Below are positions 20,104 to 43,700 of a DNA stretch of 44,582 bases, in pieces. This stretch comes from an uncultured Bacilli bacterium (GTDB lineage Bacteria > Bacillota_I > Bacilli_A > RF39 > UBA660). Both the position numbers and the translations under genes were made by a program. The stretch's first letter is position 1. Every line of letters starts with the position of its first letter. The notes below the pieces were generated by a model. That model ran no database searches and was not told the origin of the DNA. It saw nothing but the letters and a program-made list of their open reading frames with translations. The stretch is from the NCBI GenBank assembly GCA_944332205.1, contig CALVJN010000011.1, positions 1-44,582 on the forward strand. The letters run 5' to 3'.

Positions 20104-21843
20104 TTGATAACAAAGGGGCAAAAAATAAATGATCGATACGAAATCATTAAAAGTATTGGCGAGGGTGGAATGGCTAATGTTTATTTAGCTGAAGATATTA
20201 TTTTAAATAGAAAAGTAGCAATAAAAGTATTACGTGGTGATTTAGCAAATGATGAAAAATTTATAAGAAGATTTCAAAGAGAAGCAATAGCGGCATCTTC
20301 TTTGTCTCATCCTAACATTGTTGAGATGTATGACGTTGGTGAAGATAATGGCAATTATTATATAGTAATGGAATATGTTGAAGGCAAAACGTTAAAGCAA
20401 TTGCTTAAAAAAAGAGGAACACTTACACCGACAGAAGTAATTGACATAATGCTTCAGCTTACAGATGGTATTGCACATGCACACGATAGTTATATAATTC
20501 ATAGAGATTTAAAACCACAAAATATAATGATAGCAGATAATGGCGCAATAAAAATAACGGATTTTGGTATAGCCATGGCTTTAAATTCTACTCAATTAAC
20601 TCAGACTAATTCTGTTATGGGATCTGTTCATTATTTACCACCAGAACAAGCTAGTGGTAAAGGTTCAACTACAAAATCTGATATATATTCAATGGGAATA
20701 CTTTTCTTTGAATTGCTTACTGGAAAACTTCCTTTTAAGGGGGATAATGCTGTTGAGATTGCTTTAAAACATATGAAAGATCCAATACCTAGTGTTAGAA
20801 AAATTAATCCAGATTTACCACAAAGTGTCGAAAATATTATTTTAAAAGCAACAGCAAAAAATCCTAAGAATAGGTATAATGATGTAAGAGAAATGTATAA
20901 TGATTTAAAGACAGCTCTAGATGAAAATAGGACTAATGAACCTAAATATGTATACAAGTATCCAGAACACGATGTTGATGAAAAAGAACCTATTTTGCAA
21001 GAAGTAAAGGAAGATGAGGAACCAGTTGCTAAACAAATAACTGATGAAAAAGAAGGAAAATCAAATGCTATTATTTGGATATTGGCAATAGTATTTTTAG
21101 TTGGTGTTATTAGTTTAGGAATAATAATATATCCGACTTTTAAAGGTTCTGATAATGTAAAAATACCTGATGTTACAAATCTCAGTGTTGAACAAGCTGA
21201 AAAAGCACTTACAAATATTGGCTTTAAAGTATCAAACGATACAATCGAAGAATATAGTGATACTATTTCTGAGGGAAAAGTAATAGGGACAGATCCAGCA
21301 ATTGGAAGAAGTAGGCCTAAAGGAACAGTTATAACTCTTATTGAGTCTCTTGGGAAAAATGATACTTATGTTATAGAAGATTACACTGGAAAAAATTATA
21401 TTGAAATTCAAACTACTTTAGAGAAAATTTATAAAATGAATGTAACAATTGAAAAAAAAGATATTGAAATTACAGAAGATATGGATTTGCAGCTTATTAT
21501 TGATCAAAGTTTAGAACCAGGAACTACTATTACTATATCGGAAGAAGAACCTGCTAAAATAACTCTTTATATTCCAAATGTTTATGATCAATATCCTGAT
21601 TTTGTAAAAGAAGGATGGACAGTTGGTGAAGTAGAAGAATTTGCTAAAAAATATAATTTAATTTTGGATATTAAATATATTGAATCTACAGAATATGCTG
21701 ATGGAACCATAATAAATCAATCACGAACTGGAAAGATAGTAGAAGGAGCCTCACTTACTATAACAGTTACTCATGTTAAAGATGAGATTGTTCCAAGTGA
21801 TGATGAGGAAATTTTAGATGATGATTTAGAAAAAAATGAATAA
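20104..21843 (+). CDS. prkC: PASTA-domain Ser/Thr protein kinase
   Basis: Membrane kinase that senses cell-wall fragments or lipid II through extracellular PASTA repeats and phosphorylates cytoplasmic proteins. In the 579-residue product the kinase domain (about 11-270) has GEGGMANVY, Lys41 in VAIKVL, HRDLKPQN with Asp135, and DFG at 153-155. A membrane helix follows at about 319-344. Three PASTA-like repeats lie at about 353-420, 422-495 and 496-560, the second and third diverged, before an acidic tail rich in Asp/Glu. The start is TTG 20104, two bases after the prpC stop, with GGTGAT as ribosome site. IreB, its likely substrate, is encoded at 26738. Confidence 0.95.
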   Translation: MITKGQKINDRYEIIKSIGEGGMANVYLAEDIILNRKVAIKVLRGDLANDEKFIRRFQREAIAASSLSHPNIVEMYDVGEDNGNYYIVMEYVEGKTLKQLLKKRGTLTPTEVIDIMLQLTDGIAHAHDSYIIHRDLKPQNIMIADNGAIKITDFGIAMALNSTQLTQTNSVMGSVHYLPPEQASGKGSTTKSDIYSMGILFFELLTGKLPFKGDNAVEIALKHMKDPIPSVRKINPDLPQSVENIILKATAKNPKNRYNDVREMYNDLKTALDENRTNEPKYVYKYPEHDVDEKEPILQEVKEDEEPVAKQITDEKEGKSNAIIWILAIVFLVGVISLGIIIYPTFKGSDNVKIPDVTNLSVEQAEKALTNIGFKVSNDTIEEYSDTISEGKVIGTDPAIGRSRPKGTVITLIESLGKNDTYVIEDYTGKNYIEIQTTLEKIYKMNVTIEKKDIEITEDMDLQLIIDQSLEPGTTITISEEEPAKITLYIPNVYDQYPDFVKEGWTVGEVEEFAKKYNLILDIKYIESTEYADGTIINQSRTGKIVEGASLTITVTHVKDEIVPSDDEEILDDDLEKNE

Positions 21844-40262: not shown

Positions 40263-40291
40263 TTGACATAATTTTTTTAATGTATTATATT
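40263..40291 (+). promoter_or_regulatory. Promoter of the WXG-like operon
   Basis: TTGACA (40263-40268) and TATATT (40286-40291) are 17 bases apart; alternative TATTAT boxes overlap. It precedes ATG 40319 by 27 bases. Confidence 0.6.
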
Positions 40292-40318: not shown

Positions 40319-41467
40319 ATGAACGAAAATTCTATTCAGAATTATACTGAGAATATTGAATACAGTGGCGAAGACTTAATGAATTTAAATTCATTACCTG
40401 AAAAGGAAATATTTTTAAATTCTGCTTCTATAACAGATTTATGTTCTAATTGGAAGTCAAGAGTTAATAATCTCAATCTCACTTCAGAACGAATTACCAG
40501 TTCAGCTTTAAGATATTTTTCTTCATATGGTATTCTAGAAAATTATTGTGTATCTTTGTCTACAGCTATTAATTCAATAATTTTGACTATTAATAATATT
40601 AACGATAGTATTAATAATAGTAAGAATAGTCAGATTATGGTAGATGAGTCATATTCTAATAATAAAGTTATAAATAATGATTATACGACTAATTCAGTTA
40701 ACAATTCGTATAGAAAAGCCAATACTACAGTTAATAATAATTTTTATAATGCTAGTATAAATTCTAATCAAATGGGCGTTAATGATTTTAATTTGATAGA
40801 CTATATAGGAATATCGGTTGTCTTATCAAAGTTTCTATCTGCTTCAAATTCAACTTTTTTTGATATAGTTAATGATGATATCAAAATAGAGAATGTAAAA
40901 AAAGAATTACTAAATTCTATTAATATAACTGATGAATTGAAAAAAAGTTTACTTAATATGGATATTTCTGCTTTGAAACAAATATTGGTTAAACTATATT
41001 CTTCTGGTAATATAAATTTAATAAATTCAGAAAATATAGAGTTTTTGAATTCTTATTTTACAAAAATAGCAAATATTAATAATATTGATTATAATTCTTT
41101 GATAAGTAATGCAGAAAATCAACAACTTCTTTATAATAACTTTAATTATTTTAATAATGCTTTAAATTATATAGATTCAATTTCAAGTGATAATGTATTT
41201 AGGTTTAGAGAAAAAATATTAAATATATATGAAGGCAAAAATATTTATAATTTGGATTCTAATAGTGTTTCTGCTTTGAAAACTATGATTGATGTAGTAG
41301 CAGAAAACAACAATACTAGTTCTGAACAGATACTTAATGGAGATTCAAGAAACTATTTATTACCAATTATAAATTCAAAAGAATTTTTTTATATGTTCTG
41401 TAATTTAGATATGGAGAATAATCAAAAAATTTTATCTAATATTTTTTATAGGGAGGAAATAGAATAG
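40319..41467 (+). CDS. Unknown Asn-rich helical protein, first gene of WXG-like operon
   Basis: A 382-residue soluble protein with no signal peptide or membrane helix. Residues ~30-105 look like a helical hairpin (TDLCSNWKSRVNNL, then ALRYFSSYGI and AINSIILTINNINDSI). Residues ~105-155 form an Asn/Ser/Thr-rich linker, and ~160-382 are a second helical region with no known domain. Asn content is high throughout. ATG 40319 follows TTAGGTGG; the in-frame GTG at 40310 overlaps that site. Its stop overlaps the next start (TAGTG). The domain plan, a helical head, a linker and a unique tail, recalls type VII secretion (T7SS) substrates such as LXG proteins, but no LXG motif is seen. Function not known. 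Confidence 0.55.
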   Translation: MNENSIQNYTENIEYSGEDLMNLNSLPEKEIFLNSASITDLCSNWKSRVNNLNLTSERITSSALRYFSSYGILENYCVSLSTAINSIILTINNINDSINNSKNSQIMVDESYSNNKVINNDYTTNSVNNSYRKANTTVNNNFYNASINSNQMGVNDFNLIDYIGISVVLSKFLSASNSTFFDIVNDDIKIENVKKELLNSINITDELKKSLLNMDISALKQILVKLYSSGNINLINSENIEFLNSYFTKIANINNIDYNSLISNAENQQLLYNNFNYFNNALNYIDSISSDNVFRFREKILNIYEGKNIYNLDSNSVSALKTMIDVVAENNNTSSEQILNGDSRNYLLPIINSKEFFYMFCNLDMENNQKILSNIFYREEIE

Positions 41468-41778
41468 TGGCAAATATTTTTAAAATAAATTGTAAAGAAT
41501 TATACAAAATTGGAGCTTTTTTTAATTTGCAAGGTAATAACTTAAAAAATATTGTTGATAATATGAAAAAAACAAACGAAGATATTAAAGCTTTATGGAA
41601 TGGAATTGATTCTGAAATGTTTTATGAAAATTACAATGAATTTTTAGTGAGCATAAATGAAGTAGAACTTTTTATGATAGAGAAAGGAGAATTATTAAAA
41701 GAAATGGCGATTAAACATGGAAATATTGATAAAGATTTGTCTAGTAATTTAGAATGGAGAAGTAATAATGACAAGTAA
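41467..41778 (+). CDS. WXG100-like small protein
   Basis: A 103-residue all-helical protein starting at GTG 41467, with GGGAGG upstream. A central W-N-G (KALWNGIDSEMFYENY, about residue 44) sits at the turn between two predicted helices, the place of the WXG motif in ESAT-6/EsxA proteins. Length and layout fit WXG100 proteins, which are secreted as helical hairpin dimers by type VII systems. No YxxxD/E tail motif is seen. It overlaps the first gene by one to three bases and the third by 11 bases. No T7SS ATPase is encoded in this window. Confidence 0.6.
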   Translation: MANIFKINCKELYKIGAFFNLQGNNLKNIVDNMKKTNEDIKALWNGIDSEMFYENYNEFLVSINEVELFMIEKGELLKEMAIKHGNIDKDLSSNLEWRSNNDK

Positions 41779-42067
41779 TATAAAAATAGATTTCAATGGA
41801 TTAAAGGAGAAAATAGCAGAATTAAAAAAAGAAAATTTAAATATTGCTACATTGTTTGATAATGTTAAGACTAAAGCTAATCAAATACCAAATTTTTGGT
41901 TATCTCAAACAAGTGATGTAGTAATTAATGATTTGAAAAATTTGTATAATAAATTTGAAGAAATTATTGCTAGTAATGAGAAATATATATCATATTTAGA
42001 AACTGTTTGTAATAATTATATCAATACAGATAAGGACATAGAAACATTGATAAATAGTAATTTGTAA
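41768..42067 (+). CDS. WXG100-like small protein, second copy
   Basis: A 99-residue all-helical protein overlapping the preceding gene by 11 bases. Trp at about residue 43 (PNFWLSQTSDVV) sits at the hairpin turn, but the third position is Ser instead of Gly, a degenerate WXG. YINTD near residue 87-91 fits the YxxxD/E export motif at the C-terminal end. It may pair with the preceding WXG-like protein as a heterodimer. Terminated by the hairpin at 42066. Confidence 0.55.
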   Translation: MTSNIKIDFNGLKEKIAELKKENLNIATLFDNVKTKANQIPNFWLSQTSDVVINDLKNLYNKFEEIIASNEKYISYLETVCNNYINTDKDIETLINSNL

Positions 42068-42108
42068 GATTTTATATTATTTTTTAAATAAAGTCTTTTC
42101 TTTTTTTT
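42066..42108 (+). terminator. Terminator of the WXG-like operon
   Basis: 42066-42075 pairs with 42088-42097 (10 bp, one G-U), followed by a T-rich run. It starts within the stop codon. Confidence 0.7.
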
Positions 42109-42114
42109 AAAATA

Positions 42115-42860: not shown

Positions 42861-43700
42861 TCAATTTTTTAAATATTTCCGTATTAATTTTTTACGTTTT
42901 TCTGTTATCTCTGTATATTTTTTCCTTTGTAGAATAGGAATTTTAATTTTATATTTATTACTAATTATATCAAGTATATCATTTATATCTAATGTAGTTA
43001 TTATTTGTAATAAATTTTGTAATTCCGGATATTTAACTAATTCGTTGTAATTTGACATGTCAATTCCAAAAATACATGAACTATATTGTGGACTGTCTGT
43101 TGTTGATGATGTTATTGTGAGAGATTTTTCATAATCATAAAGTGGCGCTAATATAATACCATTTTTTTCTTTTTCAAAGAGAAAATTGTTTTTTGTTCTA
43201 TCTTGTTGATTCATATAAATGTCTAATGCAATCATTTTCAATAACTGCAATAATAATTTTTTATACATTTCATTTGATTTACAGTAATGTTTAAGATTTA
43301 TTAAGTTATTGAGCTGAGTACAATTAGCTTCTAAATATAAATCAGTAGGAACAATATATTTTTTTCTTTTTTGTCTAAAGTTTTCTGATAATAATCCATA
43401 TTCCATTTCTTTTTCACAATTAAGTGTACATCCAATTTGATAATTTATGGTATTTAATCCTAAAAAGGTTGCTAAAAATTCTCCAATTAGTTCATTTAGG
43501 AAATGCTCATCTGAATTTTGGTATTGAAGAAAATTTTTATAATAATACCATTTGTTATTTATATAAAACCAATTGTTCCATGTTTTTACAATTTGATAAT
43601 TTATATTTAATATTTTTGCTATTTTTTTGGGATTTTGTAAATTTTTTTTGTTAAAATATATAGGAGATGTTTCTGGCAATATTAGATTCTTGATTTTCAT
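42861..43700 (-). CDS. HipA-like kinase, no antitoxin partner seen
   Basis: A 279-residue protein with the catalytic features of the HipA-type kinase fold in its C-terminal half. ALDIYMNQQDRTKNNFLFE (about 158-176) gives the catalytic Asp167 and Asn171 or Asn172, and APLYDYEKSL carries the metal-binding Asp189. The usual N-terminal HipA domain is missing; residues 1-150 are Asn/Tyr/Lys-rich and unfamiliar. HipA toxins phosphorylate aminoacyl-tRNA synthetases and are blocked by HipB, but no HipB-like gene is next to it. ATG 43700 follows GGAGGA on the minus strand; it ends with TGA. A role outside toxin-antitoxin systems is equally possible. Confidence 0.6.
   Translation of the reverse strand: MKIKNLILPETSPIYFNKKNLQNPKKIAKILNINYQIVKTWNNWFYINNKWYYYKNFLQYQNSDEHFLNELIGEFLATFLGLNTINYQIGCTLNCEKEMEYGLLSENFRQKRKKYIVPTDLYLEANCTQLNNLINLKHYCKSNEMYKKLLLQLLKMIALDIYMNQQDRTKNNFLFEKEKNGIILAPLYDYEKSLTITSSTTDSPQYSSCIFGIDMSNYNELVKYPELQNLLQIITTLDINDILDIISNKYKIKIPILQRKKYTEITEKRKKLIRKYLKN

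What the first reader, a model, noticed from the sequence alone, without database searches (positions are those of the whole stretch)
40319..42067. Three-gene overlapping operon with two WXG100-like proteins and an Asn-rich partner
Seen: one promoter, three genes overlapping by a few to 11 bases, one terminator. The second product has W-N-G and the third W-L-S at the expected hairpin turn, both are 99-103 residues, and the third has YxxxD near its end. Known: WXG100 proteins travel as helical dimers through type VII systems, often with a larger substrate. Inference: the first gene may be a substrate or adaptor of a new type, because its tail matches no domain I recognise. No secretion ATPase or toxin/immunity pair is in the window.
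Basis: partly seen in the sequence, partly recalled or inferred. Interest (0 to 1): 0.72.

Follow-up and report, generated by a model that had tools for sequence, protein, structure and literature searches.

The report
Type VII secretion module, new partner
In an uncultured gut bacterium, three overlapping genes encode two small WXG100-type proteins and a larger protein of an undescribed family; together they look like a cargo module of the type VII secretion machine encoded elsewhere in the same genome.

Summary
Three genes (40319-41467, 41467-41778, 41768-42067) overlap by 1 and 11 bases behind a strong promoter match. Genes 2 and 3 are WXG100 relatives: family profiles match solved EsxA/EsxB along their whole length. 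The genome encodes the EssC ATPase, a YukD/EsaB candidate and an Esx pair on another contig, so the missing ATPase is only a window effect. EssB (genus) and EsaA (this genome) were not found. Gene 1 belongs to an unnamed family (A) in all 12 genomes examined of the genus, 2-8 places each. Its members sit before two WXG100 genes and usually before a larger cargo-like gene (D): A-B-C-D. Family A has an N-terminal helical region, a low-complexity linker and a C-terminal helical-repeat domain with no confident known fold. The parts are exchangeable: the repeat domain ends some D-type proteins, the N-terminal region is fused to C39-like peptidases, and two members carry a phage-type lysozyme domain. 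Best reading: A is a type VII cargo or co-exported partner carried by B and C. The window's three-gene form has no D and is shared with one other species. Export was not shown. New variant of a known kind.

The parts
40263..40291 (+). promoter-like site TTGACA-17-TATATT
   Evidence: 11 of 12 consensus bases; consensus match only
40319..41467 (+). gene A (P0001, 382 aa), first gene of the operon, family without a name in Pfam or NCBIfam
   Evidence: relatives in all 12 genomes of the genus
40409..40642 (+). N-terminal helical region of A (about residues 31-108), candidate type VII hairpin, acidic residue at its end
   Evidence: predicted helices 35-52, 56-68, 74-102 at low confidence; D or E at the end-of-hairpin column in 42 of 44 relatives; only marginal likeness to DUF5344 and EsxB
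40625..40786 (+). Asn-rich, predicted disordered linker of A (residues 103-156)
   Evidence: pLDDT below 50 over 91-156; 30% Asn
40787..41464 (+). C-terminal all-helical domain of A (residues 157-382); longer repeat series in relatives at the EssC locus
   Evidence: pLDDT 80, pTM 0.70 when predicted alone; no confident PDB match; repeated profile hits in longer relatives
41467..41778 (+). gene B (P0002, 103 aa), WXG100-like, W-N-G
   Evidence: family profile matches solved EsxA, E 5e-7, full length; W invariant in 45 of 45 family members, WxG in 44
41768..42067 (+). gene C (P0003, 99 aa), WXG100-like, W-L-S, YxxxD
   Evidence: NCBIfam NF035934 E 4e-11, below its cut-off; family profile matches solved SAG1039 and EsxB, E about 2e-6 to 3e-6; W in 45 of 45, YxxxD/E in 36 of 45 family members
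42066..42109 (+). A+T-rich hairpin followed by a T run, possible terminator

Best explanation
The operon is a substrate module of the cell's own type VII secretion system. B and C are WXG100-type proteins that probably pair and act as carrier or targeting partners; the YxxxD end of C would be the export signal. A binds them through its N-terminal helical region and is carried out with them, so that its C-terminal helical-repeat domain reaches the cell surface or the outside. In most modules a further protein, D, travels or is targeted with the same partners; in the window's three-gene form A would be the only cargo. Shown: gene order, WXG100 relationship of B and C, EssC in the genome, domain exchange between A-type and D-type proteins. 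Inferred: the complex, the export, and what the repeat domain does.
For: EssC and further WXG100 genes are in the genome, and an A-B-C-D set lies directly between the YukD-like gene and the Esx pair at the EssC locus. Forty-five A-B-C sets were found in the genus; 38 are followed by a D gene. A, B and C distances between modules correlate (rho 0.44-0.51; maximum of 500 permutations 0.17), so they are inherited as a unit. The A repeat domain ends LXG-like proteins (L098, L099), the A-type N-region is fused to C39-like peptidases (L122, L124, L125), and two A proteins carry a phage-type lysozyme domain: features of exported, wall-facing proteins. No transmembrane-like stretch in A by hydropathy. 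A, B and C are kept intact at 46-54% identity between two species while the neighbours UppP and Lon keep 80 and 92%; pN/pS is about 0.5, below 1. Known parallels: Lap1/Lap2 with LXG toxins (PMC9600955) and EsxB/C/D with EsaD (PMC10653861).
Against: The N-terminal region of A is not a demonstrable WXG100 or LXG domain: profile comparison with B and C gave nothing and DUF5344 matches are marginal (E 0.04 at best, 3 of 24). Lap1 and Lap2 in streptococci were not secreted (PMC9600955), so partner status does not prove export. EssB and EsaA were not found, so the machine differs from the textbook one. The loci were collected mostly by A hits, so the 45 is not an unbiased count.
Confidence: 0.6

Rival explanations
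1. A, B and C are a cytoplasmic targeting or chaperone set, not themselves exported, that serves a D-type cargo encoded elsewhere in the genome.
For: 38 of 45 sets have a D gene directly downstream; G000 has four other sets with D-type genes; Lap1/Lap2 act inside the cell (PMC9600955); some A-position genes lack the repeat domain and end in other low-complexity tails (L043, L125).
Against: Each other set in the genome has its own D, so an orphan escort is not needed; lysozyme and C39 domains fused to A-type proteins are hard to explain in the cytoplasm; the repeat domain recurs as the tail of cargo-like proteins.
Confidence: 0.25
2. The three-gene form is a decaying remnant of a four-gene module that lost its cargo gene.
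For: D is absent here and in the one orthologous locus; the genes evolve quickly.
Against: All three frames are intact in two species that differ in about half of the residues, with pN/pS about 0.5; the 11-base overlap of B and C is kept.
Confidence: 0.1
3. The small proteins are generic helical hairpins unrelated to secretion.
For: Individual Pfam scores of P0002 and P0003 are below the WXG100 cut-off.
Against: Family profiles find EsxA- and EsxB-type proteins first among all solved structures; relatives sit at the EssC locus.
Confidence: 0.03

Closest known systems
EsaD with EsxB, EsxC and EsxD (Staphylococcus aureus T7SSb; PMC10653861)
   Same: Small helical partners plus a larger cargo near the secretion locus; a WXG100-type pair of which one carries YxxxD/E.
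   Different: Here the third partner candidate (A) is large, with a linker and a repeat domain; no EsaD nuclease or EsaE was identified or sought by profile.
LXG toxins with Lap1 (DUF3130) and Lap2 (DUF3958) (PMC9600955)
   Same: Two small helical genes next to a larger cargo gene; an acidic end-of-hairpin residue.
   Different: TIGR04197 (Lap1) gave no match in this genome, though the control genomes gave none either; no LXG match to P0001 nor among the families listed for 18 D proteins; the A gene comes first.
T7SSc to T7SSj variants (PMC11217815)
   Same: EssC plus a ubiquitin-like protein plus WXG100 without EssB/EsaA, with small WXG100 partners beside candidate substrates.
   Different: The results section describes no component like A; no serine/threonine kinase near EssC here, the only one detected lies on another contig.

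Membership tests
WXG100 (P0002, gene B) | about 100 residues with W-X-G at the turn | tested here: met
   103 aa, W44-N-G; W in 45 of 45 and WxG in 44 of 45 family members
WXG100 (P0003, gene C) | W-X-G at the turn | tested here: not met
   W-L-S; W invariant in the family but WxG in only 26 of 45 members
WXG100 superfamily (genes B and C) | full-length sequence-profile relationship to solved EsxA/EsxB hairpins | tested here: met
   EsxA 3zbh E 5e-7; SAG1039 3gvm E 2e-6, EsxB 3fav E 3e-6; B against C hhalign 96%
WXG100 Pfam PF06013 | curated score cut-off of 27.3 bits | tested here: not met
   16.9 and 22.6 bits; other genes of the genome exceed it
Type VII substrates | EssC-type ATPase in the genome | tested here: met
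   TIGR03928 1047 bits at C2:23642-27532, with FHA and FtsK/SpoIIIE domains
Type VII substrates | T7-dependent export | not testable with these tools
   needs a secretion assay
T7SSb machine | EssB and EsaA present | tested here: not met
   PF10140 in 0 of 12 genus genomes, control B. subtilis rings; TIGR03929 no match in own genome; divergent forms not excluded
LXG effector (gene A) | LXG domain match | tested here: not met
   no Pfam hit to P0001 and no LXG hit in NCBIfam
Lap1 / DUF3130 (gene A N-terminal region) | TIGR04197 match | tested here: inconclusive
   no hit in own genome, but the controls gave none either; no match among A8 members
DUF5344 / YwqI (gene A N-terminal region) | profile match | tested here: inconclusive
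   3 of 24 relatives, best E 0.04, not P0001 itself

The most novel reading that the evidence does not exclude
Family A is a new class of type VII substrate, neither WXG100, LXG nor PE/PPE: a targeting region joined by a linker to an exchangeable outside part (helical repeats, lysozyme or peptidase), expanded into as many as eight loci in genomes of 1.1-1.9 Mb that run a type VII machine without detectable EssB.
Probability: 0.4. Interest if true: 0.72.

Novelty: new variant of a known kind. Interest (0 to 1): 0.52.

Why it matters
Which features make a protein a type VII substrate is still an open question. Here small genomes carry several parallel, diverged partner-cargo sets with swapped ends, which allows the targeting part and the carried part to be told apart by comparison. 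The family is unnamed in Pfam and NCBIfam, so annotation pipelines would call it hypothetical. It also hints that gut bacteria export wall-active enzymes through type VII systems.

Tried and rejected
Two pattern searches with diverse alignments failed for lack of conserved stretches. Profile comparison of the A N-terminal region with B, C and the repeat domain found nothing. Fold searches of the whole model and of the C-terminal domain gave no confident match (best Z 6.0, to Cmr5), which is within noise for helical bundles. GerD matches to three A relatives (best E 1.7e-6) were set aside as a likely helical-repeat likeness. The search for DUF5344 in the class found only two sub-threshold matches, so no profile of that family could be built for comparison. 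Literature searches found no description of an A-like component, though only open-access papers are held. Asn-richness as the defining feature was rejected: it is a trait of this member. Structures of B and C were not predicted; the two structure jobs went to A.

Full report
What is there. The window is contig 11 of a 1.25 Mb genome in 34 contigs, about 95% complete, at 26% G+C. At 40319-42067 three genes run in one direction: A (382 aa), B (103 aa, GTG start) and C (99 aa). A and B overlap by 1 base, B and C by 11. Ribosome sites precede all three. A strong promoter match stands before A, and an A+T-rich hairpin with a T run follows C. Next come tRNA-Lys and tRNA-Ser genes. Upstream are UppP and Lon genes (named from the protein sequences).

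B and C. Alone, both score below the Pfam WXG100 cut-off; C matches NCBIfam NF035934 at 4e-11, below its cut-off. Profiles built from relatives settle it: the best matches of both among all solved structures are EsxA- and EsxB-type proteins over the whole length, and B and C are related to each other. The W is invariant in 45 members of each family; B keeps WxG in 44, C in 26, with the rest WxS, WxT or WxA, so the window's W-L-S is a normal variant. C keeps YxxxD/E in 36 of 45.

The machine. The genome encodes EssC (1047 bits) with FHA and FtsK/SpoIIIE domains, next to an 83-aa protein whose position suits YukD/EsaB (no Pfam match), and an Esx pair preceded by a DUF4176 gene. EssB was not found in any of 12 genomes of the genus while B. 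subtilis gave a hit; EsaA was not found in this genome. EssC is present in all 12 genomes of the genus and in many others of the family.

Family A. P0001 has no credible library match. Relatives occur in all 12 genomes of the genus, in 2 to 8 places each, and hardly outside: among 385 genomes of the order only two from other genera gave weak matches. Named records of the genus are uncultured Bacilli, Erysipelotrichaceae or Clostridium by title, with titles pointing to rabbit and roe deer samples among others. Family members have an N-terminal helical region of about 80 residues, a low-complexity linker and a C-terminal domain of helical repeats, longer at the EssC locus. The C-terminal domain alone is predicted with fair confidence (pLDDT 80) and has no confident match in the PDB. 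The residue ending the N-terminal region is D or E in 42 of 44, at a place comparable with the FxxxD and YxxxD/E signals known from other type VII partners (PMC9600955); that comparison is inference.

The module. Mapping genes around these hits gave 45 A-B-C sets, 38 followed by a larger gene D. Two sets of this genome, on contigs 15 and 7, came from the WXG100 search rather than from A; the first gene on contig 7 is too diverged to match the A profile. D proteins vary: alpha/beta hydrolases, C39-like peptidases, a metallo-beta-lactamase-fold protein with choline-binding repeats (upstream of A in that locus) and many without a known domain. None was filed as LXG. Seven sets lack D downstream, among them the window and its only close relative, on contig 17 of genome G009, which has the same Lon-UppP neighbours. 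Between these two, A, B and C share 46-54% of residues, UppP 80% and Lon 92%; pN/pS is about 0.5 for the operon. The genes change fast but are kept.

Exchange of parts. The repeat domain also ends proteins with an LXG-like coiled region (judged by eye; one has a weak WXG100 match) in L098 and L099. The A-type N-terminal region is fused to C39-like peptidase domains in L122, L124 and L125. Two A proteins begin with a phage-tail-type lysozyme domain (E 2e-22 and 8e-20). This pattern, one targeting part and several carried parts, is what one expects of exported proteins, and it is the main reason to prefer A as cargo or co-exported partner over a purely cytoplasmic helper.

Mechanism. The nearest worked-out parallels are EsaD, which needs EsxB, EsxC and EsxD (PMC10653861), and LXG toxins, which need Lap1 and Lap2 (PMC9600955). 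By analogy B and C would pair, A would join through its N-terminal region, and EssC would recognise the YxxxD end of C. Complex formation and export are inferred, not shown. What the repeat domain does outside the cell is unknown; given the lysozyme and peptidase fusions, a role at the cell wall is the most likely guess.

Verdict. The system belongs to a known kind, type VII secretion with WXG100 partners; the A family and its cassette-like build are, as far as these libraries and the open literature searched here show, undescribed.

Noticed in passing
window 42861-43700 (minus strand): 279-aa ORF without a Pfam match whose sequence recalls HipA-like kinases by eye (ALDIYMNQQDRTKNNFLF).
   Followed up: partly
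window 20104-21843: The only serine/threonine kinase gene detected in the genome lies in this window, on another contig than EssC.
   Followed up: partly
L041:8572-9489, and genes of similar size beside EssC in L050 and L117: A 305-310 aa gene without a Pfam match sits next to EssC in several genomes of the genus; a candidate for a missing machine part.
   Followed up: no
L123:2006-4690: 894-aa protein with a metallo-beta-lactamase fold and choline-binding repeats, overlapping the start of an A-B-C set: a possible type VII-exported surface enzyme.
   Followed up: partly
L047:4832-7378, also L049 and L056: Tandem D genes of about 410 aa; the first in L047 has a C-terminal alpha/beta hydrolase; PAP2 and VanY genes lie upstream in L047.
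   Followed up: partly
genomes G004, G005, G006 and others: Two or three EssC genes in one small genome.
   Followed up: no
L040:19601-19999 and the end of L041:1-1203: Low-complexity repeat (GGSST-like) at the end of the D gene by EssC, read on the other strand as LLLNFLLLDF.
   Followed up: no
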